Shown here piece by piece: positions 47,089-63,578 of a stretch of DNA of 64,000 bases. Both the position numbers and the translations under genes were made by a program. The DNA is from Dryocola clanedunensis subsp. sulfonylureivorans (GTDB taxonomy: Bacteria > Pseudomonadota > Gammaproteobacteria > Enterobacterales > Enterobacteriaceae), in the NCBI RefSeq assembly GCF_016756775.1, contig NZ_JAERMU010000005.1:1-64000 (forward strand), written 5' to 3'. The notes under the pieces are model-generated. The model saw nothing but the letters and a program-made list of their open reading frames with translations. It was not told the origin of the DNA and did not search any database. Numbering within the stretch: the first letter of the stretch is position 1; each line of letters opens with the position of its first letter.

Positions 47089-47108
47089 CCAGGCTTGAGG
47101 GAAAGACT

Positions 47109-47138: not shown

Positions 47139-47157
47139 GATTTTTAGTACAGCGTCA

Positions 47158-48003: not shown

Positions 48004-48236
48004 CACCACGGCTTCCCAATAAAACGCAAACGATTACTTTAACCAAAAACAGCCACTTAAGGTACTTTTTTAATCCAGCCGTCCGTTTTTGCCTGAGAGC
48101 AAAATGCACTTTTCACGCCCTTTGCTCATCCATTAAGCAAACGCGTTATAAAGAACAAATTACGCTTGACCAAAGCGGGCTGACTCCCTATAGTAGCGCC
48201 CCGTTGCCCCCCATAAGTGGGTAACAAAAACAATAC

Positions 48237-48324
48237 GGTGAGGTGTCCGAGTGGCTGAAGGAGCACGCCTGGAAAGTGTGTATACGGCAACGTATCGAGG
48301 GTTCGAACCCCTCTCTCACCGCCA
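48237..48324 (+). tRNA. tRNA-Ser (anticodon GGA)
   Basis: The 88-nt class II tRNA starts GGTGAGGTGTCCGAGTGG and ends CTCTCACCGCCA with the CCA encoded. The acceptor stem GGTGAG(A/G) pairs with CTCTCACC. The anticodon loop CTGGAAA carries GGA, reading serine UCC/UCU. A long variable arm (TGTATACGGCAACGTATCGA) and a GGTTCGAACC T arm confirm the class. Confidence 0.97.
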
Positions 48325-48549
48325 CATTCAAAGAAGAGCTCGCATGCAAATGCGGGCTTTTTTTTCGCCTATAGCACCATACGAGAGAGGGTGAGAATCC
48401 TCGACAGGGTTCGACAACAGGCTTTAGCCTGTTGGACGTCAGGGACAGATATGGCCATGACGCCCGCAGGGTGAGCGCAGCGAATCAGCCCCTCTCTCAC
48501 CGCCACATTAAAAGAAGAGCTCGCATGCAAATGCGGGCTTTTTTTTCGC
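48308..48549 (+). repeat. Direct repeat of tRNA-Ser 3' end plus terminator (61 bp, offset 181 bp)
   Basis: The segment 48308-48368 (last 17 nt of the tRNA plus the spacer and terminator) is repeated at 48489-48549 with a single mismatch. The intervening DNA includes a perfect hairpin CAACAGGCT/AGCCTGTTG (48413-48432) and a GAGAGAGGGTGAGAATCCTC segment that echoes tRNA-Ser sequence. Each copy carries GCTCGCAT/ATGCGGGC followed by eight Ts, a good terminator (48338-48365 in copy 1). The arrangement resembles the tandem repeats downstream of some enterobacterial tRNA genes. Confidence 0.92.
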
Positions 48550-48908
48550 ATATGGTGGCTAAAATCATTGGTAAAAGCGTTCAAACACAGCATCTCTCTG
48601 CTTCATAGCACCTCAAAAACAACAATTGCGACACACAATGCAAACATTGAATTAAAAATTATTTTACAAATTACATTTCATTGTCTTTCCTTCCTAACAC
48701 AAAATAATTGAAAACTAATATTTTTCAGTCTATTACCTTCAAACCACCGGCCTGTCTCCCCCGATAATATTCAGCTCGCCATAACAGATCTGCAGCACAT
48801 ATTTAGCTCTGACTAAATGGGTATTAGGCAAAAACTAATTCTGTAAACCCGGTAATTCCCCTATTCCTGTTAAGCATCCGATGTGGATTGTTTAACCAGG
48901 AGATAACC
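48550..48908. promoter_or_regulatory. AT-rich promoter region of the catabolic operon
   Basis: This 359 bp stretch lies between the tRNA-associated repeat and the first catabolic gene. The left part is AT-rich; the last 110 bp contain tandem palindromes (listed separately). A further symmetric TGAAAA/TTTTCA pair spaced by 7 nt lies near 48709-48727. No gene is present. A promoter is required here, but its hexamers are not certain by eye. Confidence 0.6.
48801..48839. promoter_or_regulatory. Two tandem palindromes, probable operator of the catabolic operon
   Basis: ATTTAG-N6-CTAAAT at 48801-48818 and ATTAG-N7-CTAAT at 48823-48839 are perfect inverted repeats with nearly the same half-site, centred about 21-22 bp apart (two helical turns). 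They end 69 bp before the start codon at 48909. This geometry suits a dimer-of-dimers regulator such as the LysR-type protein encoded at the other end of the operon (57868-58758); that pairing is an inference. Confidence 0.65.
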
Positions 48909-49706
48909 ATGGCTGCCGTGCAGCGTTCCTTTCTTTTTGTTCCCGGCGACCGGCCTGAACGGTTTGAGAAAGCCCTCAACAGCGGAGCCGACGCGGTCAT
49001 TATCGATCTGGAAGATGCCGTTACCGCAGACAATAAACAGCTTGCCCGCCAGAATGCCCTTGCCTTTTTCGCAAGCCAGCGGCAGGCATGGGTGCGGATA
49101 AACGCTGTAGATACCCCGTGGTATAGCGAAGACCTTAACGTTATCAGACATACCGGGTGTCTTGGGGTGCTGCTCCCGAAAGCAGAAGAGCCAGGCAAAA
49201 TCATTCCCCTGACTCAGCCTGGAAAACCTGTGCTCCCCATCATTGAAACGGCCAAAGGCGCAATGAATGTCAGAGCGATAGCAGCGCTTAGCGGCGTACA
49301 GCGGCTGGTATTCGGTACGCTCGATTTCAGCCTGGATACCGGTATGGCGGATGATGAAAAGACGCTCGTTGCTATCCGCACCGAGTTGGTACTGGCCTCC
49401 CGAGTGGCTGACATCCTCTCTCCGATAGATGGTGTCACCACCGAATTTCGCCATAACACGTTAACCGCCACCAGCGCCCGCCATGCCAGCGATATGGGAT
49501 TTGGCGGCAAGCTGTGTATCCATCCTTCGCAAATTGGCGTGGTGAATGAAATCTTCAGCTACTCCGCCGAAGAGATCCGCTGGGCGCAGGACATTGTCAA
49601 CCTCAGCGAATCCGCCTTTGGTGCGCTCAGCCACAACGGGCGAATGGTAGACAAGCCGGTGCTGGAAAAGGCGAAAAAAATTCTGGCTCATCACCTTATG
49701 CCCTAA
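48909..49706 (+). CDS. CitE-like (HpcH/HpaI family) acyl-CoA lyase, probable citramalyl-CoA lyase
   Basis: The product has 265 aa from the ATG at 48909, preceded by AGGAG; an in-frame TTG at 48888 lies upstream of that site. It is a TIM-barrel of the CitE type: RSFLFVPGDRPERFEKAL, then AVIIDLEDAV (metal and substrate residues 33-38), PIIETAKGAMN, FGTLDFSLDTG and the C-terminal GKLCIHPSQI. There is no CitD/CitF nearby, so it is not citrate lyase. Stand-alone members cleave malyl-, citramalyl- or methylmalyl-CoA. With the hydratase encoded in the same operon, (S)-citramalyl-CoA to acetyl-CoA plus pyruvate is the best guess. It is the first gene of the operon, cytoplasmic. Confidence 0.85.
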   Translation: MAAVQRSFLFVPGDRPERFEKALNSGADAVIIDLEDAVTADNKQLARQNALAFFASQRQAWVRINAVDTPWYSEDLNVIRHTGCLGVLLPKAEEPGKIIPLTQPGKPVLPIIETAKGAMNVRAIAALSGVQRLVFGTLDFSLDTGMADDEKTLVAIRTELVLASRVADILSPIDGVTTEFRHNTLTATSARHASDMGFGGKLCIHPSQIGVVNEIFSYSAEEIRWAQDIVNLSESAFGALSHNGRMVDKPVLEKAKKILAHHLMP

Positions 49707-49728
49707 CCCCTGATGGAGGGAATTCAAG

Positions 49729-50478
49729 ATGAAAGTTTTAGTCTGTATCAAGCAAGTCGTTGACCATAAAGTCAAAATTCGCATTAAGCCCGATCGCTCC
49801 GGCGTGGATATCGCCGACTGCAAGCTCAGTATCAATCCCTTTGACGAGATTGCCGTTGAAGAAGCTGTTCGCCTGAAAGAGCAAGGCCAGATTGAAGAAA
49901 TTATTGTCGTCTCCATCGGAGGTGTAAGGGTGACAGATGCTCTGCGCACGGCACTGGCTCTCGGAGCCGATCGCGGGGTTCATGTGTCAACCGACAGCCT
50001 GCTCGCCCCGTTGACGGTGGCAAAAACGCTGGCCGCTATCGCCAGAATCGAGCAGCCCGCATTGATTCTGGCGGGTAAGCAAGCCATTGATGATGACTGT
50101 AACCAGACGGGACAAATGCTCGCCGCCCTGCTGGCATGGCCTCAGGCCACCAATGCCAGCACCCTCATCCTCAGTGAGGATGCTCTTCAGGTGATTCGAG
50201 AGATGGATGGCGGTATGGAAACGCTGTGTCTGCAGCTGCCGGCGGTGGTCACCACCGATCTACGATTGAATACCCCGCGCAACATTAGTCTGCCCAATAT
50301 CATGAAGGCGAAGAAGAAGCCTCTGACCGAGATGACGCTACAGCAGCTCGGTATAGATCCCACCTCCAGACTCACCCTGCTGAAAGTCAGCGAACCACCC
50401 CAGAGAGCCCCCGGTATTGTTGTCACCGATGTTGATGCCCTTATCCATAAGCTAAAAAACGAAGCAAAAGTTGTCTAA
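49729..50478 (+). CDS. etfB: Electron transfer flavoprotein beta subunit
   Basis: The product has 249 aa. N-terminus MKVLVCIKQVVDHKVKIRI, nucleotide-binding GKQAIDDDCNQTGQMLAALL and the C-terminal LPNIMKAKKKPL match the classical mitochondrial-type (group 1) EtfB rather than the enteric FixA/YdiQ/YgcR lines. GGAGGG lies 8 nt before the ATG. It pairs with the downstream alpha subunit to carry electrons from the acyl-CoA dehydrogenase of this operon. The gap to etfA is 10 bp. Confidence 0.93.
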   Translation: MKVLVCIKQVVDHKVKIRIKPDRSGVDIADCKLSINPFDEIAVEEAVRLKEQGQIEEIIVVSIGGVRVTDALRTALALGADRGVHVSTDSLLAPLTVAKTLAAIARIEQPALILAGKQAIDDDCNQTGQMLAALLAWPQATNASTLILSEDALQVIREMDGGMETLCLQLPAVVTTDLRLNTPRNISLPNIMKAKKKPLTEMTLQQLGIDPTSRLTLLKVSEPPQRAPGIVVTDVDALIHKLKNEAKVV

Positions 50479-50488
50479 GGAGAATGCC

Positions 50489-51442
50489 ATGCCCTCTTTA
50501 ATTATTGCTGAACACAATGGCAGCACGCTGTTGCCATCAACTCGCAGCACCATTACGGCCGCTAAATACATCGATGACGACATTCACCTGCTGCTGATGG
50601 GAGATGACATCGCGGCGCTCGCCCATCAGGCCAGCCAAATCGATGGGGTTAGGGTGGTGTTTATGGTCGACAGCCCTGTTTTTAAGCATGTGCTCGCAGA
50701 GAACGTTGAGCTGCAGATCGGCACTTTTTTGCACCAGCAGGGAAACGTCTATCAGGCCATTCTCTTTCCGGCCAGCACCTATGGCAAAAACTGCGCCCCC
50801 CGTTTAGCGGCGAAACTGGATGTCTTCCAAATCAGTGATATCACCGCCGTTATCGATCCGCATACTTTCGAGCGCCCAATCTACGCCGGTAACGCCGTGG
50901 CAACGCTCCGTAGCAATGACACGATCAAGGTGATTACAGTCCGCCCTACAGCCTTCGAACCTGCTACCGATGGGGGCAACGCCCGTGTTGAGTCGATCGA
51001 CGCCATTTCCGGGACTCAACAGACTGAGTTCATCAGCCAGCAGGTCACACAAAACACTCGTCCGGATCTGCAGGCTGCGAAAATTATTGTCTCCGGCGGG
51101 AGAGCCCTGGGCAGCGCCAGCGCTTTCGCGGAGGTCGTGGAAAGGCTCGCCGATACGCTCGGTGCTGCCGTGGGGGCCAGCAGAGCCGCCGTAGATGCAG
51201 GCTACGCCCCGAATGATTATCAGATTGGCCAGACCGGCAAAATTGTCGCTCCCCAGCTTTATATTGCGCTGGGGATTTCCGGGGCGATTCAGCATATCGC
51301 CGGGATGAAAGAGTCCGCGGTAGTGGTGGCTATCAATAAAGATCCTGATGCGCCTATTTTCGCCGCCGTGGACTACGGGCTGGTTGCCGACCTCTTTACC
51401 GCCGTTCCTGAACTGATTGAAAAATTGCCCTCCAGCCACTGA
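50489..51442 (+). CDS. etfA: Electron transfer flavoprotein alpha subunit
   Basis: The product has 317 aa from the ATG at 50489 (AAGGAG 6 nt upstream); a TTG at 50471 lies before the ribosome-binding site. The C-terminal FAD domain is canonical: SGGRALGSASAFAEV, GASRAAVDAGY, QIGQTGKIVAPQLYIALGISGAIQH, and INKDPDAPIFAAVDYGLVAD. Length is normal. It forms the FAD-holding heterodimer with EtfB and should pass electrons to the ETF:quinone oxidoreductase at the operon's end. Confidence 0.95.
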   Translation: MPSLIIAEHNGSTLLPSTRSTITAAKYIDDDIHLLLMGDDIAALAHQASQIDGVRVVFMVDSPVFKHVLAENVELQIGTFLHQQGNVYQAILFPASTYGKNCAPRLAAKLDVFQISDITAVIDPHTFERPIYAGNAVATLRSNDTIKVITVRPTAFEPATDGGNARVESIDAISGTQQTEFISQQVTQNTRPDLQAAKIIVSGGRALGSASAFAEVVERLADTLGAAVGASRAAVDAGYAPNDYQIGQTGKIVAPQLYIALGISGAIQHIAGMKESAVVVAINKDPDAPIFAAVDYGLVADLFTAVPELIEKLPSSH

Positions 51443-51456
51443 TGACAAGGACATTT

Positions 51457-52299
51457 ATGTCAACCGCAACCTTATGGCAGCCGGCGCCACTGCACGATGC
51501 CGATTGTCTGGCAACGGGGCCAGCTAACCGCCTTGCCGCTATGTTCGACACCGCAATAAAGCCACTTAAAGAGGGAGATGCGCTCCCCGAACTGTGGCAC
51601 TGGCTCTATTTTTTGCCAGCGGATCGTCAGTCAGCACTGGCAGCCGACGGGCATCCTGAAAAAGGGCATTTCCTGCCGCCAGTATCTTTACCAAGAAGGA
51701 TGTGGGCTGCCAGCCATTTGCTCTGGCACTCCCCTTTCAGGTTGGGTGAAGCGATCGACAAAACCTCCCGCGTGAAGCAGGTCAGCGAAAAAAATGGCCG
51801 CAGCGGAAAACTGGTTTTTGTCGATGTAGAGCACCACTACACCGCAGGTGAGAGGAAGGTGTTAACCGAAGTTCATTCTATTGTCTACCGGGAGCGAGCT
51901 TCCTCCTTCGCCGCGGAAAGGCGTAACACCAGCAATATGGAACTGCCACAGGCGCAATTCTCACAACAGATTGTCCCCGATCCCAGACTGCTGTTCCGTT
52001 ACTCCGCCCTGACATTTAATACCCACCGTATCCATTACGATCTTGATTACGCCAGGCACGCCGAAGGGTATCCGGGGCTGGTCGTTCACGGGCCACTCAC
52101 GGCTACATTGTTGGTGAATCTGCTGCGGAAAACCGTCCCGGACATCAGGATCCATAGCCTGCAATTTAAGGCTCTGGCGCCGCTGTTCAGCCCCAACCCA
52201 ATCACACTCTGCGGCCGTATCGATGGTAATGAAGTCACCCTGTGGGCCTGTGGCCCGCAGAATTTGCTGTCCATGAAAGCAACGGCATTACTCAACTGA
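51457..52299 (+). CDS. Itaconyl-/mesaconyl-C4-CoA hydratase-like protein (double hotdog, FAS1-like dehydratase)
   Basis: The product has 280 aa. The ATG at 51457 has AAGGA 5 nt upstream; another ATG at 51442 overlaps the etfA stop. The C-terminal hotdog has SALTFNTHRIHYDLDYA and EGYPGLVVHGPLTATLL, the HTD2/mesaconyl-C4-CoA hydratase pattern. The N-terminal half is a second, degenerate hotdog with FLPPVSLPRRMWAAS. Characterised relatives hydrate mesaconyl-C4-CoA or itaconyl-CoA to (S)-citramalyl-CoA, which would feed the CitE-like lyase. Cytoplasmic. Confidence 0.82.
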   Translation: MSTATLWQPAPLHDADCLATGPANRLAAMFDTAIKPLKEGDALPELWHWLYFLPADRQSALAADGHPEKGHFLPPVSLPRRMWAASHLLWHSPFRLGEAIDKTSRVKQVSEKNGRSGKLVFVDVEHHYTAGERKVLTEVHSIVYRERASSFAAERRNTSNMELPQAQFSQQIVPDPRLLFRYSALTFNTHRIHYDLDYARHAEGYPGLVVHGPLTATLLVNLLRKTVPDIRIHSLQFKALAPLFSPNPITLCGRIDGNEVTLWACGPQNLLSMKATALLN

Positions 52300-52309
52300 G
52301 GGCAATTTA

Positions 52310-53473
52310 ATGAAAAGCATTGAACAGGACAATTATCAGGACATTCGTGAGGCTGTACGTGCGCTGTGTGCCGGGTTCAGTGATGAGTACCATCGCCAGG
52401 TGGATGAGAAGAAAGGTTATCCGGAGGCCTTTGTGGATGCGCTGACGCAGGCGGGATGGCTTGCGGCCCTGATCCCCGAAGAGTATGGCGGTGCAGGCCT
52501 GGGACTGACGGAAGCATCGGTCATCATGGAGGAGATCAACCGCTCTGGCGGCAATTCAGGTTCCTGTCACGGCCAGATGTATAACATGAACACCCTGTTA
52601 CGCCACGGCTCAGAGCAACAGAAAGCGTTCTGGTTACCTCGTATTGCCAGCGGGGAATGGCGGCTCCAGTCGATGGGGGTCACAGAGCCTACCACCGGCA
52701 CCGACACCACCAAAATCAAAACTACGGCCATTAAAAGAGACGGTCGCTATGTCATCAACGGCCAAAAGGTCTGGATTTCTCGGGTACAACATTCGGACTG
52801 GATGATCCTGCTGGCGCGCACGACCCCTCTGTCCGAGGTACGCCGCAAATCTGAAGGTATGTCAATTTTTATGGTTGATATCAAAGAAGCCATGCAAAGC
52901 GGCATGACGGTTCGCCCCATCGCCAACATGGTCAATCACGAAACCAATGAGCTGTTCTTTGAAAACCTCGAAATCCCGGAGCAAAACCTAATCGGTGAAG
53001 AGGGGATGGGATTTCGTTACATCCTGGATGGGCTAAATGCCGAACGCACGCTGATTGCCGCAGAGTGTATTGGTGACGGCTACTGGTTCCTGGACCGCGT
53101 CACTAAGTATGTCAGCGAGCGCGAAGTGTTTGGCCGCCCTATTGGGCAGAACCAGGGGGTGCAGTTCCCGATTGCCGAAGCTTTTATTGAAGTGGAAGCG
53201 GCGAATCTGATGCGTTTCAAAGCCTGCGAACTCTTCGACAGGCATCTCCCCTGTGGCGCACAGGCCAATATGGCCAAATATCTCGCCGCTAAAGCTAGCT
53301 GGGAAGCTGCCAACGCCTGCCTGCAGTTCCACGGCGGATACGGCTTTGCTAACGAATATGATATCGAGCGAAAGTTCCGTGAGACCCGGCTTTACCAGGT
53401 CGCGCCTGTCTCGACGAATCTTATCCTCAGCTATATCGCCGAGCACGTGCTGGATCTGCCGCGTTCGTTTTAA
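52310..53473 (+). CDS. Acyl-CoA dehydrogenase
   Basis: The product has 387 aa, normal length. Substrate and FAD segments: ALIPEEYGGAGLGLTEA, QSMGVTEPTTGTDTT, YVINGQKVWISRVQHSDW, REVFGRPIGQNQGVQFPIAE and CLQFHGGYGFANEYDIERKFRE. The usual C-terminal catalytic Glu (the EGT motif after RDA-type Arg) is absent; the aligned stretch reads YQVAPVSTN. Instead, Glu245 in GLNAERTLIA sits where isovaleryl-CoA and long-chain dehydrogenases carry their base. This points to a branched substrate. It is expected to reduce the operon's ETF. GAGGG 7 nt before the ATG. Confidence 0.93.
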   Translation: MKSIEQDNYQDIREAVRALCAGFSDEYHRQVDEKKGYPEAFVDALTQAGWLAALIPEEYGGAGLGLTEASVIMEEINRSGGNSGSCHGQMYNMNTLLRHGSEQQKAFWLPRIASGEWRLQSMGVTEPTTGTDTTKIKTTAIKRDGRYVINGQKVWISRVQHSDWMILLARTTPLSEVRRKSEGMSIFMVDIKEAMQSGMTVRPIANMVNHETNELFFENLEIPEQNLIGEEGMGFRYILDGLNAERTLIAAECIGDGYWFLDRVTKYVSEREVFGRPIGQNQGVQFPIAEAFIEVEAANLMRFKACELFDRHLPCGAQANMAKYLAAKASWEAANACLQFHGGYGFANEYDIERKFRETRLYQVAPVSTNLILSYIAEHVLDLPRSF

Positions 53474-53515
53474 CGATCCGACTTCTCTTTTTCTGGCTGA
53501 AGCCGGAGGTCTTAT

Positions 53516-54712
53516 ATGAAACAGTTACCCTTGACGGGGATCACCGTGGTCTCCATTGAACATGCGATCGCCGCCCCATATTGCACCAGGCAACTTGCAG
53601 ATTACGGCGCTCGCGTCATCAAAATAGAACGCACGGGCAGCGGTGATTTTGCCCGTGGTTACGATGAACGAGTAAACGGTATTTCGTCGCATTTTGTGTG
53701 GACCAACCGTTCAAAAGAGAGCATCGCGGTGGATCTCAAAACCCCCGCGGGGCAAGCGATCCTCAAACAGCTGATCGCCAAAGCAGATGTGTTTGTGCAG
53801 AACCTGGCACCCGGTGCGGCAGCCCGTATGGGGCTTGACTGGGGCACCCTGTCGGCAGCACACCCCGGATTGATTGTCTGCGATATTTCCGGCTACGGGG
53901 ATGACCCCCAGCAACCTGGCCCTTATCGCGACAAGCGGGCTTACGATCTGCTGATTCAGGGAGAGTCAGGATTTTTATCTGTCACCGGCACACCGGAAGC
54001 ACCCTCGAAAGCGGGCAATTCGATTGCCGATATCTCCGCGGGAATGTACGCGTTGACCAATATCCTGGCGGCCCTCCTCCAACGTAGCCTGAGCGGTAAA
54101 GGCCGTAGAATCGATATCTCGATGCTCGAAAGCATGGCGGAATGGATGGGATACCCCCTCTATTACACCTTTGATGGGGCAGTCGCCCCTGTTCGTACCG
54201 GCGCGGCACATGCCACTATTTACCCTTACGGTCCCTTTCCGGCTCAGGGTGACGAATCCATTCTGATGGGCATTCAGAACGATCGTGAGTGGCAGCGCTT
54301 CTGCCAGACGGTAATTGAACGCCCGGAGCTGGCAAAGGATGACCGCTTTGCGCAGAACTCTTCACGAGTGCAAAACCGCGTGCTGCTGCGGGAGATTATC
54401 GTTTCTGTGTTCCGGGATTTTAGCGCCGCAGAGCTGATTAACCGGCTGGAGGCAAGCCAGATAGCCAACGCCAGAATGAGTGATATCAGCGACTTATGGA
54501 CCCATCCGCAGCTGAGCGCCCGCAAACGCTGGGTTGATATCACTACCCCCGCCGGGACAGTCCCAGCCCTGTTACCGCCGGGTATCAGGGATATCAGGGA
54601 TACACAAATGATGGCGGTACCTGCGCTGGGTGAACACACGAGCAAAATCCTCAAAGAGCTAAATTACAGCCAGCAACTTATTAATGAAATGCGTACCAAT
54701 AACATCATCTGA
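53516..54712 (+). CDS. Class III (CaiB/BaiF) CoA-transferase
   Basis: The product has 398 aa. N-terminal ITVVSIEHAIAAPYCTRQLADYGARVIKIE, LVHTNRSKES-like (here VWTNRSKESIAVDLK), and RAYDLLIQGESGF, whose Asp144 is the predicted nucleophile that forms the aspartyl-CoA intermediate. GGAGG 6 nt before the ATG. It should move CoA from a donor such as succinyl-CoA or acetyl-CoA onto the imported acid, the first step of the proposed pathway. Characterised relatives act on itaconate, mesaconate, succinate or carnitine; the sequence does not choose among them. Confidence 0.92.
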   Translation: MKQLPLTGITVVSIEHAIAAPYCTRQLADYGARVIKIERTGSGDFARGYDERVNGISSHFVWTNRSKESIAVDLKTPAGQAILKQLIAKADVFVQNLAPGAAARMGLDWGTLSAAHPGLIVCDISGYGDDPQQPGPYRDKRAYDLLIQGESGFLSVTGTPEAPSKAGNSIADISAGMYALTNILAALLQRSLSGKGRRIDISMLESMAEWMGYPLYYTFDGAVAPVRTGAAHATIYPYGPFPAQGDESILMGIQNDREWQRFCQTVIERPELAKDDRFAQNSSRVQNRVLLREIIVSVFRDFSAAELINRLEASQIANARMSDISDLWTHPQLSARKRWVDITTPAGTVPALLPPGIRDIRDTQMMAVPALGEHTSKILKELNYSQQLINEMRTNNII

Positions 54713-54766
54713 CACTTAATTATAAAAACATCTACCTCATATTCTCTTTATCGTGGAGTACACCTT

Positions 54767-56140
54767 ATGAATACAACGAATGACATCGCCGAGGGCCGCA
54801 CGCATGACATAAGTAATAAACTAAGAGTCAAATCCATACTGAGTGCCTGTGCAGGTAACCTTGTTGAGTGGTATGACTTTTTTATTTATGCCTATACGTC
54901 GATCTATTTTGCTGCGCTCTTTTTCCCAGACGGTAATCAGACCACGCAATTAATGGCCACCGCAGGCATCTTTGCGGTTGGCTTTTTTATGCGCCCGATC
55001 GGCGGCTGGATTTTTGGTTATATTGCCGATAATAAAGGCAGAAAAATCGCCATGATCATCTCAATTTTCCTGATGTGTGGCGGATCGTTGCTGATTGCTT
55101 TCCTGCCGACCTACGAATCGATTGGCGTCATCGCTCCCTTATTGCTGTTGGTTGCACGTTTAATGCAGGGGTTATCGGTTGGTGCGGAGTACGGCACTGG
55201 TGCGACATATATTAGTGAAATATCCCGTAAAGGGACGCGCTGTTTCTTTGGTTCTTTTCAGTACATGACCATCATTGCCGGGCAATTGCTGGCGCTGCTC
55301 ACGGTCTCGGTGCTGCAGTTTGTGCTCAGCGCCGAAGAGATGCGGGCCTGGGGCTGGCGCGTTCCGTTCCTGATTGGCGCGGTGAGCGCAATCATCGTGG
55401 TCTGGCTGCGCCGTCATATGGTAGAGACTATCGCCAACAAGAAAGACAAAAATGCGCAGGCTGGTACGATCAGGGAGCTGATGAAATATAAAAAGGCCAT
55501 CATTGTCACTTTATTCATCACCATGGGCTGCTCGCTCTACTTCTATACCTTCACCAGCTATATGCAGAAGTTTCTTGTCCTCTCCGTAGGCCTGCCCCCA
55601 GAGAAAGCTGGTTTCATCATGACGGCTGCGCTGGTGCTGTTTATGTTTCTGCAACCGGTATTTGGCGCGCTTGCCGATCGTATTGGCTCAAGAAACAGCA
55701 TGATGTTGTTCGGGTTGCTCGCCACCTTCTTTGTTATCCCACTAATGCAGACACTGCAGGGGGCGAATGACATCTGGACCGCTATGGCTCTGGTCATTGC
55801 CGGGTTATTGATTGCCAGCTTCTATACCCCTGTAACAGGGGTCATGAAAGCGGATCTGTATCCGGCCAACGTCCGGGTGTTGGGCGTTTCACTTCCCTAT
55901 GCTATCGGCAACGCCCTTTGTGGAGGCACCGCAGAATATATCGCGTTATATACACGATCTGTCGGTGTTGAGAGCCATTTCTATATTTATGTCGCGGTCA
56001 TGACTTTCCTCTCCTTTGTTGCCGCCTGGATGCTACCGGATTTGAAGAAGCACGGTTGGCTGGATGGCGACGGCAAGATCGAAGAGATGACCGTCCTGCG
56101 TAATAAAAAAGCTGCGCTGATTTCAGACACTCAGCTTTGA
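54767..56140 (+). CDS. MHS-family MFS carboxylate:proton symporter (KgtP/ShiA-like)
   Basis: The product has 457 aa, 12 helices. The opening SACAGNLVEWYDFFIYAYTS, the loop RPIGGWIFGYIADNKGRKIA and LMQGLSVGAEYGTGATYISE are signatures of the metabolite:H+ symporter family, which includes transporters for 2-oxoglutarate, citrate, shikimate and betaine. GGAGT 7 nt before the ATG. Set between the CoA-transferase and ETF:quinone oxidoreductase genes, it probably imports the operon's growth substrate, a small (di)carboxylate. Confidence 0.92.
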   Translation: MNTTNDIAEGRTHDISNKLRVKSILSACAGNLVEWYDFFIYAYTSIYFAALFFPDGNQTTQLMATAGIFAVGFFMRPIGGWIFGYIADNKGRKIAMIISIFLMCGGSLLIAFLPTYESIGVIAPLLLLVARLMQGLSVGAEYGTGATYISEISRKGTRCFFGSFQYMTIIAGQLLALLTVSVLQFVLSAEEMRAWGWRVPFLIGAVSAIIVVWLRRHMVETIANKKDKNAQAGTIRELMKYKKAIIVTLFITMGCSLYFYTFTSYMQKFLVLSVGLPPEKAGFIMTAALVLFMFLQPVFGALADRIGSRNSMMLFGLLATFFVIPLMQTLQGANDIWTAMALVIAGLLIASFYTPVTGVMKADLYPANVRVLGVSLPYAIGNALCGGTAEYIALYTRSVGVESHFYIYVAVMTFLSFVAAWMLPDLKKHGWLDGDGKIEEMTVLRNKKAALISDTQL

Positions 56141-56174
56141 TTGCCGTTTCTGTTGCTGACTACAGGAGTCAATA

Positions 56175-57860
56175 ATGACTGATTTTTCTTCCACAAGTCC
56201 GTTAGCACGCGAAACCATGGAATGTGATGTGCTGATAGTAGGGGCGGGTCCGGCAGGTCTGGCGAGCGCTATCAGGCTAAAAACACTGGCCGATGCCGCA
56301 GGTCAACCGCTCTCTGTGATTGTTATAGATAAGGGATCGGAAGCTGGCGCTCATATCTTAAGTGGTGCCGTGATGGATCCTCGTGCACTCAATGAGCTGA
56401 TTCCAGACTGGCGGCAACAAGGGGCTCCGCTGAAACAGGCCGTCACCTGCGAGGACGTTCTACTTTTGTCAAAGCACAAAGCCTGGCGAGTCCCTGACTG
56501 GCTCGTACCGGGCAATCTTCACAATCAGGGGAATTTCATTATTAACCTTGGCAATCTGATTAAATGGCTGTCGGATTATGCGGAAAAACTCGGCGTCGAT
56601 GTCTTTGCTGGCTTCCCGGCCAGCGAAGTGTTGTACAACAACGAGGGCGTGGTTATCGGTGTTGCTACCGGAGATGCAGGCCGTGACCGCGAAGGCCATC
56701 CCAAAATGGAGTTCCAGTCAGGCATTGAGATACTCGCCAGCTATACCGTGTTTGCGGAAGGGGCCAGAGGACAGCTAGGAAAAGAATTAATTGAACAGTT
56801 TCAGCTGGATGCAGACAAAGCGCCCCCCAGTTTCAGCCTCGGTATCAAAGAGCTTTGGGAAGTCCCGCAACGCTTGTCCCGACCCGGTCTGGTCGTGCAC
56901 ACCACGGGATGGCCAATGGACGCCGAAACCTTTGGTGGAGGGTTCCTTTACCATCTCGATAATAATAAAGTCGCCGTCGGGATGGTGATCGGCCTTGACT
57001 ATCCTAATCCCTGGTTAAGCCCTTTTGAGGAGATGCAACGCCTCAAAACACACCCGGCTATCTGCCAGCATCTCGTCGGGGGAAAACGCCTCGGCTACGG
57101 AGCACGAACCATCAATAATGGGGGCGTACCTTCCATGCCCACTCCCTGTTTTGCCGGTGGTCTGCTGATTGGTTGCAATAGCGGGACGCTCAACGCCAGC
57201 CGCATTAAGGGTAGCCACACCGCGATGAAAAGCGGGATGATCGCTGCAGAGGCCATTTTCTCTGCCCTTAGTGCGGGTCGGCGTCATGACGTGCTGATTG
57301 AGTATCAGCACCAGCTGCAACAGAGTTGGCTGTGGCAGGAGTTGACCCGCGCCAGTAACTTCAAACCCTGGTTCAAAAAAGGCCGTCTTACTGGTTTGCT
57401 GATGACGGGTATTGAGCACTGGCTGCTACCCCGGCTGGGTATCCGCACCATTCCCTGGCAACTAAAGCACCACCAGCCCGATCACGCCACGCTGCAACCC
57501 GCCAGTCAATGCCAGAAAAAGCAGTACGCCCGACCTGATGGCATACTGACTTTCGACATTCCCTCCTCGGTCTACCTCAGCAACACCTGGCATGAGGAGG
57601 CGCAGCCGGTACATTTAAAACTTAAGGACCGGGGCATTGCGTTGACGGTAAATTATGCGCTCTACGCCGGGCCGGAGGGGCGTTATTGTCCCGCAGGGGT
57701 GTATGAATATTTGCAAGATACCGCAGGGCAAACGCCACGCTTACAGATCAATGCGCAAAATTGTCTGCATTGTAAAACTTGCGACATTAAAGATCCCCGC
57801 CAGAATATTCGCTGGGTGGCACCAGAGGGGGGGGGCGGACCAAACTATAGCGGGATGTAA
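56175..57860 (+). CDS. Electron transfer flavoprotein:ubiquinone oxidoreductase, single chain
   Basis: The product has 561 aa, the full length of mitochondrial/pseudomonad-type ETF-QO. FAD motif CDVLIVGAGPAGLASAIRL at about 18-37, quinone/membrane-binding region in the middle, and a 4Fe-4S domain with Cys505, Cys530, Cys533 and Cys536 (CPAGVY; CLHCKTC) ending WVAPEGGGGPNYSGM. Enteric FixC/FixX-type systems split these parts into two proteins; here they are one. It passes electrons from the operon's ETF to the quinone pool at the inner membrane. CAGGAG before the ATG. Last gene of the operon, 7 bp from the convergent LysR gene. Confidence 0.95.
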   Translation: MTDFSSTSPLARETMECDVLIVGAGPAGLASAIRLKTLADAAGQPLSVIVIDKGSEAGAHILSGAVMDPRALNELIPDWRQQGAPLKQAVTCEDVLLLSKHKAWRVPDWLVPGNLHNQGNFIINLGNLIKWLSDYAEKLGVDVFAGFPASEVLYNNEGVVIGVATGDAGRDREGHPKMEFQSGIEILASYTVFAEGARGQLGKELIEQFQLDADKAPPSFSLGIKELWEVPQRLSRPGLVVHTTGWPMDAETFGGGFLYHLDNNKVAVGMVIGLDYPNPWLSPFEEMQRLKTHPAICQHLVGGKRLGYGARTINNGGVPSMPTPCFAGGLLIGCNSGTLNASRIKGSHTAMKSGMIAAEAIFSALSAGRRHDVLIEYQHQLQQSWLWQELTRASNFKPWFKKGRLTGLLMTGIEHWLLPRLGIRTIPWQLKHHQPDHATLQPASQCQKKQYARPDGILTFDIPSSVYLSNTWHEEAQPVHLKLKDRGIALTVNYALYAGPEGRYCPAGVYEYLQDTAGQTPRLQINAQNCLHCKTCDIKDPRQNIRWVAPEGGGGPNYSGM

Positions 57861-57867
57861 ATCGGAT

Positions 57868-58758
57868 TTATGAGGGCTGCGGCGCCAATAATGAGACCAG
57901 CTGTTGGGCAAAACCTGGCAACTGGTCAAAGCGACGGGCGCAAAGGTGTAACTGACGAAATGCCCAAATATCCTCCAGATCTATAATCGTGAAGTCGTGA
58001 AGTTGTTGCAGGCGCGAAGCAGCCGAAAAAGGCATAACCCCAATCCCTACTTTGGCAGCCACCATGCGGCAAAAAGTTTCAAAATTCCCCACCTGAATGC
58101 GAATTTTCAGTTTTCGGTTAATCGCCTCAGCCTGCTTTTTGATGAACTCATACATGCCGGTTCCCTCCGGCAGCGTGATATGTTCGTAGTGGGTTAACTC
58201 TGCAAAGCTGACATTTTTCAACGCCACCAGAGGATGATCGTTCGCGGTGATAAGAACCAATTTATCAGTGCGAAACGGCAATAGCTCCAGGCTGTCATTC
58301 ATGATGTTACCGGCCACAATCCCCAGATCCGTTGTCCCGTCAATCACTGAACGGACAATCTCAGGACTGGGGTACTCCCGCAGATCGATATCCACATCAT
58401 TGTACTGCGTCAGATACTGGCTAAGCAGAGGTGGCAGATATTCAGCAATAGCCGTAATACTGGCAAAAATGCGCACATGACCTTTTATGCCTTTCACATG
58501 CTCCTGCATATCGCTGTGCAGCCGCTCATGTTGGTTAAGAATCAGCCGAACATGGTAACAGAATGTCTCACCCGCAGGCGTCAGCCTCACTCCCTGGCTG
58601 CTGCGGTAGAACAGTCGCAGTTTAATGCGCTCCTCCAGGTTTTTTAACCGTACGCTCGCCGAGGCAGCCGACATAAAGGCTTTTTGCGCCCCCTGGGTCA
58701 AACTCTGCTGCTCGCTGATGGCAAGGAACAGCTTCAAATCAGTAATATCGAAGTGCAT
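57868..58758 (-). CDS. LysR-type regulator of the catabolic operon
   Basis: The product has 296 aa with standard LysR layout: helix-turn-helix at residues 4-62 (LKLFLAISEQQSLTQGAQKA, then ASASVRLKNLEERI) and a full co-inducer domain (GHVRIFASITAIAEYLPPLL, ending LAPQPS). It is more conventional than the four island regulators and not closely related to them. It is convergent with the operon. An autoregulatory-looking palindrome lies just upstream of its start. A likely activator responding to the substrate or its CoA ester. Confidence 0.92.
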   Translation of the reverse strand: MHFDITDLKLFLAISEQQSLTQGAQKAFMSAASASVRLKNLEERIKLRLFYRSSQGVRLTPAGETFCYHVRLILNQHERLHSDMQEHVKGIKGHVRIFASITAIAEYLPPLLSQYLTQYNDVDIDLREYPSPEIVRSVIDGTTDLGIVAGNIMNDSLELLPFRTDKLVLITANDHPLVALKNVSFAELTHYEHITLPEGTGMYEFIKKQAEAINRKLKIRIQVGNFETFCRMVAAKVGIGVMPFSAASRLQQLHDFTIIDLEDIWAFRQLHLCARRFDQLPGFAQQLVSLLAPQPS

Positions 58759-58783
58759 TTTGCTATCCGTCTGTTTCAGCCAG

Positions 58784-58800
58784 AGGTGAATTTATCACCT
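58784..58800. promoter_or_regulatory. Palindrome upstream of the catabolic LysR gene
   Basis: AGGTGA-N5-TCACCT is a perfect inverted repeat starting 26 bp upstream of the LysR start, and CACC-N4-GGTG overlaps its right end. It is a plausible autoregulatory site. Its half-site differs from the operator in front of the operon, so a different regulator or site type is possible. Confidence 0.45.
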
Positions 58801-58978
58801 TGTGGTGCAAGGAAAAATCATCACCTTCCGTCGAATACCTGGCTTGTGACATTGATCGTTAACAGGGGAACAGAGACGTATTATTGCAGTTTAAGGGAGG
58901 CTTTTTTTCGTCTTTAAAACACCCGGTCATACACTTCGTTTATCCACCTACAGTCACCCGCTATTCCGAGCGCATAAA

Positions 58979-59004
58979 AAAGCCCGAACCTGGGTTCGGG
59001 CTTT
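58979..59004. terminator. Bidirectional terminator downstream of acrF
   Basis: AAAGCCCGAACC (58979-58990) and GGTTCGGGCTTT (58993-59004) form a 12-bp stem. On the minus strand it runs into TTTTTTATG, good for acrF; on the plus strand it has only CTTTA. Confidence 0.85.
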
Positions 59005-59013
59005 AGGTTGCTG

Positions 59014-59049
59014 ACAAAGAAGGAAAAAGCGTGGTTTTTCCTTCTTTGT
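59014..59049. repeat. Perfect 15-bp inverted repeat
   Basis: ACAAAGAAGGAAAAA (59014-59028) is exactly complementary to TTTTTCCTTCTTTGT (59035-59049), with loop GCGTGG. Flanking GGTTGCT/AGCAGCC (59006-59012, 59054-59060) can extend the stem with one G-U pair. Confidence 0.85.
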
Positions 59050-59060
59050 AGTAAGCAGCC

Positions 59061-59082
59061 GAAAATCAATGAATTGATTTTC
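59061..59082. repeat. Perfect 10-bp inverted repeat
   Basis: GAAAATCAAT and ATTGATTTTC flank a 2-nt centre (GA). With the neighbouring hairpins it forms a compact structured block in the acrF 3' region. Confidence 0.75.
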
Positions 59083-59148
59083 CTTGTTATTTATTCGGTG
59101 AGATCTTTGCGAAACGCATTCGCTTTAGGTTTGTCATCAGTCTGAAAC

Positions 59149-59170
59149 CCGAACCTGAGTCCGGGCTTTC
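59149..59170 (-). terminator. Imperfect first terminator of acrF
   Basis: CCCGAAC and GTCCGGG (one mismatch) lie 18-40 bp beyond the acrF stop. The sequence CCCGAACCTG repeats that of the stronger hairpin at 58979-59004, so the two look like diverged copies. Confidence 0.6.
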
Positions 59171-59187
59171 TGCACTTCAGCACTTCA

Positions 59188-62100
59188 TTACTCTTTCGGC
59201 TTGCTGAACCGCTCTCTTATCACCACGAAGAACACCGGCACAAAGAAGATGGCCAGCAGGGTTGCCGAGAGCATCCCGCCCATCACCCCCGTCCCCACGG
59301 CATTCTGCGCACCGCTCCCTGCCCCGCTACTCATCACCAGCGGCAGCACGCCGAGGATAAAGGCCAGCGAGGTCATCAGGATTGGGCGCAGACGCATACG
59401 CACCGCTTCAAGCGTCGCATCCAGCAGGCCTTTGCCCTCTTTCTCCATCAGATCCTTGGCGAACTCCACAATCAGTATCGCGTTCTTCGCCGACAGGCCG
59501 ATGGTGGTCAGCAGTCCCACCTGGAAGTAGACGTCGTTGTTCATACCGCGCATTGCCGCAGCAAGCAGAGCCCCGACCACGCCAAGCGGCACGACCAGCA
59601 TGACCGAGAACGGAATCGACCAGCTTTCATACAGCGCCGCCAGACACAGGAAGACGACGATAAGCGAGATGGCGTAAAGTGCGGGCGCCTGATTACCGGA
59701 CAGCCTTTCCTGGTAGGACATCCCCGTCCAGTCGTAGCCGATACCGGAAGGCAGTTTCGCCGCCAGTTTCTCCATCAGGTCCATCGCCTCACCGGTACTT
59801 TTGCCCGCTGCCGCTTCGCCTAACAGCTCCATCGACGGCAGGCCGTTATAGCGCTCAAGGCGAGGTGAGCCATACATCCAGTGGGATGTCGAAAACGCGG
59901 AGAACGGCACCATCTGACCGGAAGTTCCTCGCACATAGAGATTGTTGATATCCTTCGGCAGCATGCGGTAACGCGCATCGGCCTGGACATAAACCTTCTT
60001 CACGCGGCCATGATCGATGAAGTCGTTAACGTAGGAGCCGCCGAGCGCCGTGGCAATCGTCTGGTTGATATCCGCGAGATTCACGCCGAGGGACTGCGCT
60101 TTCTCCTGGTCAATCTCCAGTTTGTACTGCGGCGTATCTTCAAGACCGTTTGGACGCACGCGCACCAGCAGGTCCGGGTGCTGTGCCACCATCCCAAGCA
60201 GTTTGTTACGTGCCTGAGTCAGCGCCTGATGTCCCAGGTTTGCCTGGTCTATCAGCTCAAAGTCGAAGCCTGTTGCCGTACCCAGTTCGATAATCGCCGG
60301 CAGATTGAACGGGAAGACCAGCCCGTCACGAATCTGGCTAAAGGCACGCGTCGCTCGCTCAACGATGGCCCCCACGCCGTTTTCTTTACCCGGACGCTCC
60401 TCCCACGGTTTCAGGCTGATAAACGCCAGGCCGGAGTTTTGCCCCTGGCCGCTGTAGCTGAAGCCGTTCACCGTAAACACCGACTCAACGTTAGCCTTCT
60501 CGGTGTTCAGGTAGTAATGGGTTATCTGGTCGAGCACCTTCTGGGTTCTTTCCTGAGTCGCCCCCGCCGGCAGCTGCACCATGGTCATAAAGACGCCCTG
60601 GTCCTCTTCCGGCAGGAAGGAGGTTGGCAGGCGCAGGAAGAGCACGGCCATGCCTATCACAATCAGCAGGTAGAGCAGCAGATAGCGTCCGGTATTGCGC
60701 AGGATGTTGCTGACGCTGTCGGTGTAGTGGTGCGCGCTCTGGTCAAACTTGCGGTTAAACCAGCCAAAGAAGCCGCCTTTATGGTGCGCTTCGGGATCGA
60801 CAGGTTTGAGCAACGTGGCGCACAGCGCCGGGGTGAGGATCAGCGCGACCAGCACGGACAATGCCATTGCCGATACGATAGTAATGGAGAACTGACGGTA
60901 AATTGCCCCGGTCGAGCCGCCGAAGAAGGCCATTGGGATGAACACTGCAGAGAGCACCATCGCGATGCCCACCAGCGCCCCCTGAATCTGCTCCATCGAT
61001 TTTTTGGTGGCCTCTTTCGGCGAGAGATGATCTTCCACCATCACGCGCTCGACGTTTTCCACCACCACGATGGCGTCATCCACCAGCAGGCCTATCGCCA
61101 GCACCATGCCGAACATCGTCAGGGTGTTTATCGAGAAGCCAAACGCCGACAGCACGGCAAACGTCCCCAGCAGCACCACCGGCACGGCGATGGTCGGGAT
61201 CAGCGTCGCGCGGAAGTTTTGCAGGAAGAGATACATCACCAGGAACACCAGGATTATCGCTTCAAACAGCGTTTTCACCACTTCATGAATCGAAATCTTC
61301 ACGAACGGCGTGGTGTCGTACGGGTAGACAACCTTCATGCCCTGCGGGAAATAAGGCTGCAACGAGGCCAGTTTGGCTTTAATGGCCGCTGCGGTGTCCA
61401 GCGCGTTCGCGCCGGTCGCAAGCTTGATCCCCAGGCCTGCCGCGGGCTGGCCGTTGATTTTCGCCACCACGTTGTAGTTTTCTCCGCCCAGTTCGATACG
61501 CGCCACATCGCTTAAATGCACGACCGAACCGTCGGGATTCACCTTCAGCGTTACCCTGCCGAACTCAACCGGATCTTTCAGGCGCGTCTGGGCGATGATT
61601 GAGGCGTTCAGCTGCTGATCTTTCACCGCAGGCGTACCGCCGAGCTGCCCGGCGGCAACCTGGTCGTTCTGCACCTGGAGCTGGCTGACCACGTCGCCCG
61701 GATTGAGCTGGTATTTGTTCAGCGCATCGGCATTCAGCCAGACGCGCATCGCGTACTGCGCGCCGAAGAGCTGAACGTCCCCCACCCCGTTGGTCCGGCT
61801 GATCGCATCCTTCACGTTGGAGGCAACGTAGTCGGAAATATCGTCCTGGGTCAGTTTGGCGTTATCAGAGATGAAACCGGCCACCAGCAGGAAGCTGCTG
61901 GAGGATTTTTCCACGCTGATCCCCTGCTGCTGTACTTCCTGCGGCAGCAGCGGCATCGCCAGCTGGAGCTTGTTCTGCACCTGGACCTGGGCGATATCCG
62001 GGCTGGTGCCGGAGTTAAACGTCAGGGTAATGGTCACGCCGCCGGCCGAGTCGCTGGTGGAGGACATGTACATCAGGTTATCGATGCCGTTCATGTTCTG

Positions 62101-62298
62101 CTCGATAACCTGGGTCACGGTATCCTGCACAGTCTGCGCATCGGCCCCCGGATAGGTTGCGGTTATCGCTACGGCGGGCGGCGCAATCGTCGGGTACTGG
62201 GCAACGGGCAGCTTAAAGATCGCCAGCGCCCCGGCGATCATCAGGATGATCGCCAGCACCCACGCAAAGATAGGTCGTTCAATAAAAAACTTAGCCAT
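59188..62298 (-). CDS. acrF: RND multidrug efflux permease, AcrF-type
   Basis: The product has 1036 aa, 12 membrane helices and two large periplasmic loops. N-terminus [28 protein letters not shown] and [16 protein letters not shown] resemble AcrF more than AcrB. The proton-relay aspartates are present ([14 protein letters not shown]). It forms the inner-membrane pump of a tripartite efflux system with the AcrE-like adaptor and TolC. It starts 13 bp after acrE. AAGGTAAG lies upstream of the ATG. Substrates are not predictable beyond broad hydrophobic compounds. Confidence 0.93.
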
Positions 62299-62311
62299 TA
62301 CAAAACTTACC

Positions 62312-63466: not shown

Positions 63467-63543
63467 TACGGTTCCTTAATAATACAAGCGTACAAATGCC
63501 CACAGGGGCAACGCTGAACATGATTCTCAAACAAAAGTGACGA

Positions 63544-63565
63544 CCGGCGGGCCTCGGCCCACCGG
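63544..63565 (-). terminator. GC-rich hairpin between the two RND units
   Basis: CCGGCGGGCC (63544-63553) and GGCCCACCGG (63556-63565) pair over 10 bp with one wobble. There is only a weak T-rich tail (TCGTCACTTTTG) on the minus strand, so it is a partial terminator or attenuator 14 bp after the upstream RND stop. Confidence 0.5.
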
Positions 63566-63578
63566 CAACGGATCTCAG

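What the first reader, a model, noticed from the sequence alone, without database searches (positions are those of the whole stretch)
48909..57860. Eight-gene operon encoding a complete candidate route for methylsuccinate (or itaconate/mesaconate) catabolism
Seen: CitE-like lyase, etfB, etfA, mesaconyl/itaconyl-CoA-type hydratase, acyl-CoA dehydrogenase, class III CoA-transferase, MHS carboxylate transporter and ETF:quinone oxidoreductase, all on one strand with short gaps. Known: CoA-transferase, hydratase and CitE-like lyase together form the itaconate route (Ict-Ich-Ccl; rip genes of Salmonella), ending in acetyl-CoA and pyruvate. Inference: the extra dehydrogenase with its own ETF and ETF-QO adds an oxidation step ahead of the hydratase. 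The natural substrate would then be the saturated acid, methylsuccinate. I know of no described enterobacterial operon of this composition.
Basis: partly seen in the sequence, partly recalled or inferred. Interest (0 to 1): 0.85.

Follow-up and report, generated by a model that had tools for sequence, protein, structure and literature searches.

The report
Self-powered methylsuccinate-degradation operon in an enterobacterium
This is a set of eight neighbouring genes that very probably lets a relative of the gut bacteria take up and burn the five-carbon acid methylsuccinate (and itaconate) by a route already proven in other bacteria, here packaged with its own wiring to the respiratory chain.

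Summary
Eight genes at 48909-57860 (+), with spacers of -1 to 54 bases, encode Ccl, EtfB, EtfA, Ich, Mcd, Ict, an MHS transporter and ETF-QO; a convergent LysR gene follows. The window's dehydrogenase is 75-80% identical to those of 30 Pseudomonadaceae loci, 28 of which have Ich next to it. What differs: the operon carries its own ETF and ETF-QO, the only ones found in this genome; it has an MHS transporter; no MmgE/PrpD isomerase was found in the genome, so (R)-methylsuccinate is the expected enantiomer. The whole operon also occurs in Buttiauxella sp. B2 and Pluralibacter gergoviae, and eroded in two Salmonella-group genomes. Two new details: all 55 Mcd rows have Glu on helix G as in isovaleryl-CoA dehydrogenase and Pro at the usual catalytic Glu, and the eroded copies keep mcd, ETF and ETF-QO under purifying selection after losing the CoA-transferase. 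Verdict: new variant of a known pathway.

The parts
48909..49706 (+). ccl: CitE-like (S)-citramalyl-CoA lyase, P. aeruginosa type
   Evidence: 42% identity to the 8khl/9nzb chain; below the RipC cut-off (154 vs 375 bits)
49729..50478 (+). etfB: electron-transfer flavoprotein beta subunit
   Evidence: one of only two PF01012 matches in the genome
50489..51442 (+). etfA: electron-transfer flavoprotein alpha subunit
   Evidence: the ORF listing gives an earlier TTG start at 50471; 50489 ATG chosen
51442..52299 (+). ich: itaconyl-CoA / mesaconyl-C4-CoA hydratase (MaoC-like)
   Evidence: only PDB matches at E <= 0.001 are 8huc and 8khg; 43% identity to 8huc
52310..53473 (+). mcd: methylsuccinyl-C4-CoA dehydrogenase (acyl-CoA dehydrogenase family)
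   Evidence: 75-96% identity to Mcd of C5-dicarboxylate clusters; tree
53042..53044 (+). codon of Mcd Glu245, predicted catalytic base on helix G (isovaleryl-CoA dehydrogenase position)
   Evidence: Glu in 55 of 55 Mcd rows, Glu in the IVD row, Gly in the SCAD row
53405..53407 (+). codon of Mcd Pro366, at the position of the usual C-terminal catalytic Glu
   Evidence: Pro in 55 of 55 Mcd rows, Glu in the SCAD row, Ala in the IVD row
53516..54712 (+). ict: class III (CaiB/BaiF) CoA-transferase for itaconate / (R)-methylsuccinate
   Evidence: PF02515 340 bits; 60% identity to the Ict of a Pseudomonas Mcd-Ict-EtfBA-Ich-Ccl cluster
54767..56140 (+). MHS-type MFS carboxylate/H+ symporter
   Evidence: 541 bits to NCBIfam PRK10406, cut-off 550; 58% identity to an MFS transporter near the Haematobacter four-enzyme cluster
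56175..57860 (+). ETF:ubiquinone oxidoreductase
   Evidence: PF05187 and PF21162; only PF05187 match in the genome
57868..58758 (-). LysR-type regulator, convergent; probable pathway regulator
   Evidence: 46-53% identity, over the part fetched, to a LysR beside Ich-Mcd in 26 of 30 Pseudomonadaceae loci
48237..48324 (+). tRNA-Ser(GGA) just left of the segment absent from a congener
   Evidence: congener G065 passes within 23 bases from own 48545 to own 67832
48546..64000 (.). part inside the window of a ~19.3-kb segment (own contig 48546-67831) absent from congener G065 at this site, holding the operon, LysR and two tandem AcrB-type pump genes; insertion inferred

Best explanation
A horizontally acquired catabolic operon for branched C5 dicarboxylates, chiefly (R)-methylsuccinate and itaconate, with its own respiratory coupling. 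Uptake: the MHS symporter imports the acid (inferred). Activation: Ict moves CoA from succinyl-CoA to (R)-methylsuccinate or itaconate (by homology). Oxidation: Mcd removes two hydrogens from methylsuccinyl-C4-CoA to give mesaconyl-C4-CoA; from alignment I infer that Glu245 on helix G is the base, as in isovaleryl-CoA dehydrogenase, whose substrate is also methyl-branched at the beta carbon. Electrons pass from Mcd FAD to EtfBA and via ETF-QO to ubiquinone (inferred; no other ETF or ETF-QO was found in this genome). Hydration: Ich gives (S)-citramalyl-CoA, from itaconyl-CoA too. Cleavage: Ccl gives acetyl-CoA and pyruvate. The LysR protein is the likely regulator. Shown here: gene content, homology, conserved neighbourhood, no other ETF/ETF-QO/MmgE match in the genome, a segment absent from a congener at a tRNA gene. 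Inferred: every catalytic step, the substrate and the direction of transfer.
For: Ich and Ccl have as best solved relatives an itaconyl-CoA hydratase and acyl-CoA lyases. Mcd is 75-80% identical to the Mcds of 30 Pseudomonadaceae loci; Ich is next to it in 28 and an MmgE (the published isomerase's family) in 26 of the 30. In two Pseudomonas genomes the next acyl-CoA dehydrogenases are at 34% or less, so the family is sharply separated. Of 85 loci with Ich, 21 have Mcd, and 17 of these 21 also have Ict and Ccl. Published assays: C. necator and P. aeruginosa Mcd act on both methylsuccinyl-CoA enantiomers and make mesaconyl-C4-CoA (C. necator enzyme), Ict prefers (R)-methylsuccinate, and the authors assume ETF as acceptor (PMC12290011). 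EtfBA also lies with the same enzymes in Variovorax, Paraburkholderia and Pseudomonas (L084, L082, L138). The eight-gene order is complete in Buttiauxella sp. B2 and Pluralibacter gergoviae. Catalytic-residue pattern in 55 of 55 Mcd rows, window included.
Against: No enzyme or growth data exist for this genome. Ich and Ccl are only 43 and 42% identical to the solved chains. No protein of the operon reaches a curated NCBIfam cut-off, so specificity rests on neighbourhood. Mcd orthologues at 75-76% lie away from Ich in 2 of 30 Pseudomonadaceae loci (L107/L137, L109) and in L106; L137 is a large cluster of acyl-CoA dehydrogenases and enoyl-CoA hydratases, so the family may have other substrates. 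64 of the 85 Ich loci show no Mcd in the stretch held; 44 of them, mostly Polynucleobacter and other Burkholderiaceae by title, have Ich, Ccl and an MmgE without Mcd, so Ich does not imply methylsuccinate use. No isomerase here. I could not compare directly with the assayed PA0879 or C. necator H16 proteins.
Confidence: 0.85

Rival explanations
1. It is in practice an itaconate (and citramalate/mesaconate) degradation or detoxification operon; Mcd and its ETF are minor passengers.
For: Ict, Ich and Ccl alone suffice for itaconate, and three-gene forms are usual in pathogens (PMC12290011). No MmgE/PrpD isomerase found in the genome.
Against: Mcd, EtfB, EtfA and ETF-QO are four of the eight genes and kept in all three complete operons. 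Mcd is the best conserved protein of the operon (96, 93, 87% in L001-L003, against 84, 63, 63% for Ich). In the two Salmonella-group remnants the oxidation genes persist while ict and ccl decay.
Confidence: 0.08
2. The substrate is a different beta-branched or dicarboxylic acyl-CoA (for example glutarate or a breakdown product of a larger compound); the enzymes are recruited homologues with shifted specificity.
For: An Mcd orthologue lies in a larger degradation cluster in L137. The CoA-transferase's best NCBIfam score is succinate--glutarate CoA-transferase, far below cut-off (271 vs 750 bits).
Against: Published C. necator Ict has kcat/KM 0.06 for glutarate against 65 for (R)-methylsuccinate. 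Glutaryl-CoA oxidation would not need Ich and Ccl (recalled pathway knowledge). Ich, Mcd, Ict and Ccl lie together in 17 of the 21 Mcd-bearing loci.
Confidence: 0.05
3. The operon is decaying or silent, kept by hitch-hiking with the neighbouring pump genes.
For: Its hydratase is absent from the other 5 of the 6 genus genomes, the segment is absent from congener G065, and related copies in two Salmonella-group genomes are eroded.
Against: All eight frames are open and closely spaced. Buttiauxella sp. B2 keeps the whole operon at 86.4% DNA identity over 10.3 kb, and the further 1.9 kb of its contig do not match the pump genes.
Confidence: 0.03

Closest known systems
C. necator / P. aeruginosa itaconate-methylsuccinate degradation cluster (PA0878-PA0883)
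   Same: Homologues of Ich, Mcd, Ict, Ccl; a LysR of the same family beside it in 26 of 30 Pseudomonadaceae loci
   Different: No MmgE/PrpD isomerase and no PA0880 homologue in the operon; own EtfBA and ETF-QO; MHS symporter instead of the TRAP transporter; LysR convergent at the 3' end; enterobacterial host
Variovorax paradoxus VAI-C plasmid cluster (L084) and Pseudomonas sp. MIACH cluster (L138), met in no paper that I opened
   Same: The same four enzymes plus EtfBA in the cluster
   Different: No ETF-QO match in the 16-19 kb examined; L084 has MmgE; gene order differs
Yersinia/Salmonella rip operon and Serratia entomophila itaconate operon
   Same: Same logic for itaconate: CoA-transferase, hydratase, lyase
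   Different: Convergently evolved variant with nonhomologous or distantly homologous enzymes (PMC12290011); no dehydrogenase or ETF named in the S. entomophila text; RipC cut-off not met here
Ethylmalonyl-CoA pathway (2S)-methylsuccinyl-C1-CoA dehydrogenase
   Same: Acyl-CoA dehydrogenase family, also makes a mesaconyl-CoA
   Different: Acts on the C1 ester. The solved enzyme, which I recall to be 6es9, is a distant relative of the window protein (E 1.2e-43, 37th of 39)

Membership tests
P. aeruginosa/C. necator-type methylsuccinate-itaconate cluster | Ich and Ccl of the P. aeruginosa type | tested here: met
   Best PDB relatives 8huc/8khg and 9nzb/8khl; 43% and 42% identity. That these are PA0878 and PA0883 is recalled
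P. aeruginosa/C. necator-type methylsuccinate-itaconate cluster | Mcd-family dehydrogenase in the cluster | tested here: met
   75-80% identity to Mcds of which 28 of 30 are next to Ich; same tree. Not compared with PA0879 or the C. necator H16 protein itself
P. aeruginosa/C. necator-type methylsuccinate-itaconate cluster | Class III CoA-transferase Ict in the cluster | tested here: met
   PF02515; 60% to the Ict of L138
P. aeruginosa/C. necator-type methylsuccinate-itaconate cluster | MmgE/PrpD (S)-(R)-methylsuccinate isomerase (fifth gene) | tested here: not met
   No PF03972 match at E <= 0.001 in the whole genome; 7 of 14 controls ring, E. coli among them. Hence filed as a variant, not as the five-gene cluster
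P. aeruginosa/C. necator-type methylsuccinate-itaconate cluster | Enzyme activities on C5 CoA esters | not testable with these tools
   Needs purified enzymes
Rip (Yersinia/Salmonella) itaconate operon | RipC equivalog lyase | tested here: not met
   154 bits against cut-off 375; best in the genome 153.8 bits
Isovaleryl-CoA-dehydrogenase-like catalytic arrangement (works like, not member of) | Glu on helix G, none at the usual C-terminal position | tested here: met
   Glu245 and Pro366 in 55 of 55 rows; IVD row Glu and Ala; SCAD row Gly and Glu. L140 is an IVD by its best matches 4o5m, 4kto, 1ivh. The catalytic role of that Glu in IVD is recalled
ETF:ubiquinone oxidoreductase | UQ-binding and 4Fe-4S ETF-QO domains | tested here: met
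   PF21162 132 bits, PF05187 163 bits

The most novel reading that the evidence does not exclude
Mcd, EtfBA and ETF-QO are a transferable oxidation module that can feed either of the two convergent C5 routes. In the window's genome it feeds its own Ich and Ccl. In two genomes of the Salmonella group that lost ict and the transporter before they split, and whose ccl (in one also ich) is broken, mcd, etfB, etfA and the ETF-QO gene remain open and under purifying selection. Both genomes carry a RipC elsewhere (RipA and RipB were not sought), so the retained module may pass its mesaconyl-CoA to the unrelated Rip enzymes and widen itaconate degradation to methylsuccinate, which PMC12290011 (citing others) reports as a gut product of itaconate reduction.
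Probability: 0.25. Interest if true: 0.55.

Novelty: new variant of a known kind. Interest (0 to 1): 0.38.

Why it matters
It places methylsuccinate catabolism, described so far for Cupriavidus, Paraburkholderia and Pseudomonas type clusters, in Enterobacteriaceae, and suggests what the pathway needs in a host without another ETF or ETF-QO: it brings its own. That makes the ETF step, which the 2025 paper only assumes, testable with cognate proteins. The invariant Glu245/Pro366 pattern is a precise mechanistic prediction for the Mcd family. Methylsuccinate is reported as abundant in human faecal samples as a reduction product of itaconate (PMC12290011 citing others), so enteric users of it are of ecological interest.

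Tried and rejected
Rejected: membership in the Rip operon (RipC cut-off not met). Rejected: a glutarate pathway as main function (published Ict kinetics). Rejected: the 65-bp repeat of the tRNA-Ser 3' tail (48308-48372 and 48489-48553) as a scar of this segment, because the tail repeat also lies beside another tRNA-Ser copy in the genome and in a congener. Rejected: ETF-QO as a marker of this operon alone: 14 of 295 family genomes have it and only 4 of these carry this operon or its remnant.

Led nowhere: E. coli collection (the rows listed are acrB, no place covers 80% of the query; no match to mcd); plasmid DNA search gave 2 records, mcd only; growth phenotypes: passages of one paper say that Siccibacter and Franconibacter do not use itaconate, and the 5 papers listed I did not open. 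(papers on PA0878/PA0883 structures) was seen as a listing only. I could not obtain P. aeruginosa PA0879 or the C. necator H16 proteins. I did not run a structure prediction.

Rows dropped or limits: the 85 loci are the best 80 of 356 relatives of the hydratase plus 5 plasmid loci, many cut by contig ends, and genes are called present by bit-score thresholds, so absences there are not proof. Mcd rows are distinct matches of at least 60% identity and 350 residues among fetched loci, which were themselves found by similarity. The 30 loci are the best by score among 161 matching genomes of 398. The family draws are 295 genomes of a larger group. dN/dS is a simple Nei-Gojobori count on one pair of genomes. 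The tree has two outgroup rows on very long branches, so its root is unsure. One search covered an unrelated family only to learn where the window lies.
Full report
OBSERVATION. The eight open frames lie at the stated places on the + strand: ccl 48909-49706, etfB 49729-50478, etfA 50489-51442, ich 51442-52299, mcd 52310-53473, ict 53516-54712, MHS transporter 54767-56140, ETF-QO 56175-57860. Spacers run from -1 to 54 bases. A LysR gene, 57868-58758, faces the operon's end. The hydratase has only two solved relatives at E <= 0.001, 8huc and 8khg, the second deposited as itaconyl-CoA hydratase; the lyase's best are 9nzb and 8khl. That these chains are P. aeruginosa PA0878 and PA0883 is recalled, not stated by a call; of the 28 Pseudomonadaceae loci with Ich beside Mcd, 27 match the hydratase chain at 71-82% and one (L108) at 50%.

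WHAT IT IS. De Witt et al. 2023 (PMC9875883; passages) moved PA0878-PA0886 into P. [quoted passage not shown] Gonner et al. 2025 (PMC12290011; introduction, results and first part of the discussion read) purified the enzymes: the acyl-CoA dehydrogenase of C. necator and P. aeruginosa oxidises both enantiomers of methylsuccinyl-CoA, with mesaconyl-C4-CoA as product for the C. necator enzyme; Ict prefers (R)-methylsuccinate; the MmgE/PrpD protein is the (S)-(R)-methylsuccinate isomerase. They assume ETF as electron acceptor without testing it.

FAMILY TESTS. In Pseudomonadaceae 161 of 398 genomes have an Mcd at E <= 1e-150. In the 30 loci fetched, identity to the window's Mcd is 75-80%; Ich is adjacent in 28, an MmgE lies within the fetched stretch in 26 and a LysR related to the window's in 26. 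In two Pseudomonas genomes the next acyl-CoA dehydrogenases are at most 34% identical. Ict is 60% identical to that of a Pseudomonas cluster, the level published between C. necator and P. aeruginosa (60%). Ich and Ccl are more diverged, 43 and 42% to the solved chains. A Rip-type lyase is excluded (154 vs 375 bits). Of 85 Ich-bearing loci, 21 have Mcd and 17 of these also Ict and Ccl.

WHAT DIFFERS. (1) Respiratory coupling. The genome has two PF01012 matches, both in this operon, and one PF05187 match, here. The Escherichia coli control rings for ETF but not for ETF-QO. In the family draw 14 of 295 genomes carry ETF-QO; 4 of these carry this operon or its remnant. In the stretches around the other 10, both EtfA and EtfB are present in 9 and a SCAD-like dehydrogenase in 7; the tenth has only a short EtfA-like piece. 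ETF-QO is thus an accessory gene in this family that travels with ETF. (2) No MmgE/PrpD match in the genome, so efficient use of (S)-methylsuccinate is not expected. (3) An MHS symporter in place of the TRAP transporter. EtfBA without ETF-QO lies with the same enzymes in Variovorax VAI-C, Paraburkholderia caribensis MBA4 and Pseudomonas sp. MIACH, and an MHS transporter near the four enzymes in Haematobacter massiliensis, so only the full combination is new.

DISTRIBUTION. Among 295 family genomes 3 have the hydratase: the window's, one (G074) with the identities of Pluralibacter gergoviae, and one (G045) whose contig is identical with that of S. enterica arizonae CCUG 6322T (L003 and L104 are 100% identical over 14,231 bases). 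In the genus it is 1 of 6. Complete operons: Buttiauxella sp. B2 (L001) and Pluralibacter gergoviae (L002). The five enteric Mcds form one clade (100/99) next to plasmid-borne Mcds of Variovorax and Acinetobacter (97/88; joined at 95/84). I infer one entry into the enterics, perhaps from a plasmid pool; ETF linkage outside them (L138, L082) is scattered on the tree. At tRNA-Ser(GGA), congener G065 passes within 23 bases from own 48545 to own 67832, so the operon, the LysR gene and two AcrB-type pump genes lie in a ~19.3-kb segment that G065 lacks. I examined this site in one congener only; insertion rather than loss is inferred. An integrase was not sought.

SALMONELLA-GROUP REMNANTS. S. arizonae (L003/L104) and a second genome of the same genus group, G260 (L103), keep etfB, etfA, mcd, ETF-QO and LysR open; ccl is broken, ict is reduced to about its first 53-72 codons, the transporter is gone, and G260 also lacks most of ich. 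The stretch with the ict remnant is collinear in both, so that loss predates their split. dN/dS between the two is 0.26 (etfB), 0.17 (etfA), 0.11 (mcd), 0.16 (ETF-QO) and 0.21 (LysR), while the remnant stretch is 79.5% identical with 10 gap positions, against 90-94% for the genes. Both genomes have a RipC over cut-off elsewhere (445 and 453 bits); the window's and G074 do not. RipA and RipB were not sought. The simplest reading is that the oxidation module is still used. Against: one pair only, recombination not tested, and the published Y. pestis CoA-transferase is ~30 times less efficient with methylsuccinate than with itaconate.

MECHANISM DETAIL. At the position of the usual C-terminal catalytic Glu (Glu in the SCAD-like row) all 55 Mcd rows have Pro366; all 55 have Glu245 on the helix where isovaleryl-CoA dehydrogenase has Glu and SCAD has Gly (printed alignments). 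That the helix-G Glu is the base in isovaleryl-CoA dehydrogenase is recalled knowledge. Isovaleryl-CoA and methylsuccinyl-C4-CoA share the methyl branch at the beta carbon, which fits. PMC12290011 has no occurrence of 'glutamate', 'catalytic base' or 'isovaleryl'.

RESULTS AGAINST. L106, L107/L137 and L109 hold Mcds away from Ich, with the same residues; L137 lies among other acyl-CoA dehydrogenases, enoyl-CoA hydratases, a CaiB enzyme and EtfBA. So 75% identity alone does not fix the pathway; the neighbourhood does. 64 of the 85 Ich loci show no Mcd, and 44 of these have Ich, Ccl and MmgE without Mcd, which is at odds with the published statement that the isomerase gene always lies next to an Mcd gene, unless these MmgE proteins have another function. 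No protein of this operon has been assayed.

VERDICT. Observation confirmed, interpretation supported, chemistry already known; a new variant, of moderate interest for the self-contained ETF/ETF-QO, the enteric host and the retained module in the Salmonella group. On checking I lowered the main confidence from 0.86 to 0.85 for the Ich loci without Mcd.

Noticed in passing
window 59000-59150: A ~145-bp intergenic repeat: 39 further places in the window's own genome at 87-98% identity in the (capped) list, and more diverged ones in congeners; family not identified.
   Followed up: no
window 59188-62298 and own contig C5 63582-66704 (L167): Two tandem AcrB-type pump genes lie in the same segment as the operon, each 75-77% identical in DNA to the acrB-like gene of four congeners.
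   Followed up: partly
window 48308-48372 and 48489-48553: 65-bp direct repeat of the tRNA-Ser(GGA) 3' tail plus terminator, 181 bases apart; the tail repeat also occurs at another tRNA-Ser copy and in a congener.
   Followed up: partly
L137 (Pseudomonas sp. JAI120): An Mcd orthologue (75%) sits in a large cluster with several other acyl-CoA dehydrogenases, enoyl-CoA hydratases, an SDR, a MaoC protein, a CaiB enzyme and EtfBA; its substrate is unknown.
   Followed up: partly
L004, L005 and 42 similar loci: Ich, an MmgE (64-66% to the Variovorax one in L004 and L005) and Ccl together without Mcd or Ict, mostly in Polynucleobacter and other Burkholderiaceae: a different use of the isomerase family or an Mcd elsewhere.
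   Followed up: no
L105 (G265, same genus as the window) 9973-14661: A different EtfB-EtfA-ETF-QO set with a SCAD-like dehydrogenase (42%) beside it in a congener, a second accessory ETF set in the genus.
   Followed up: no
L103 and L003/L104: Eroded forms of the operon in two Salmonella-group genomes that keep mcd, etfBA, ETF-QO and LysR under purifying selection.
   Followed up: yes
window 45910-48009: An ion-channel/TrkA-N gene and a PNP_UDP-type phosphorylase gene left of the tRNA have no DNA match in the five congeners beyond short pieces.
   Followed up: no
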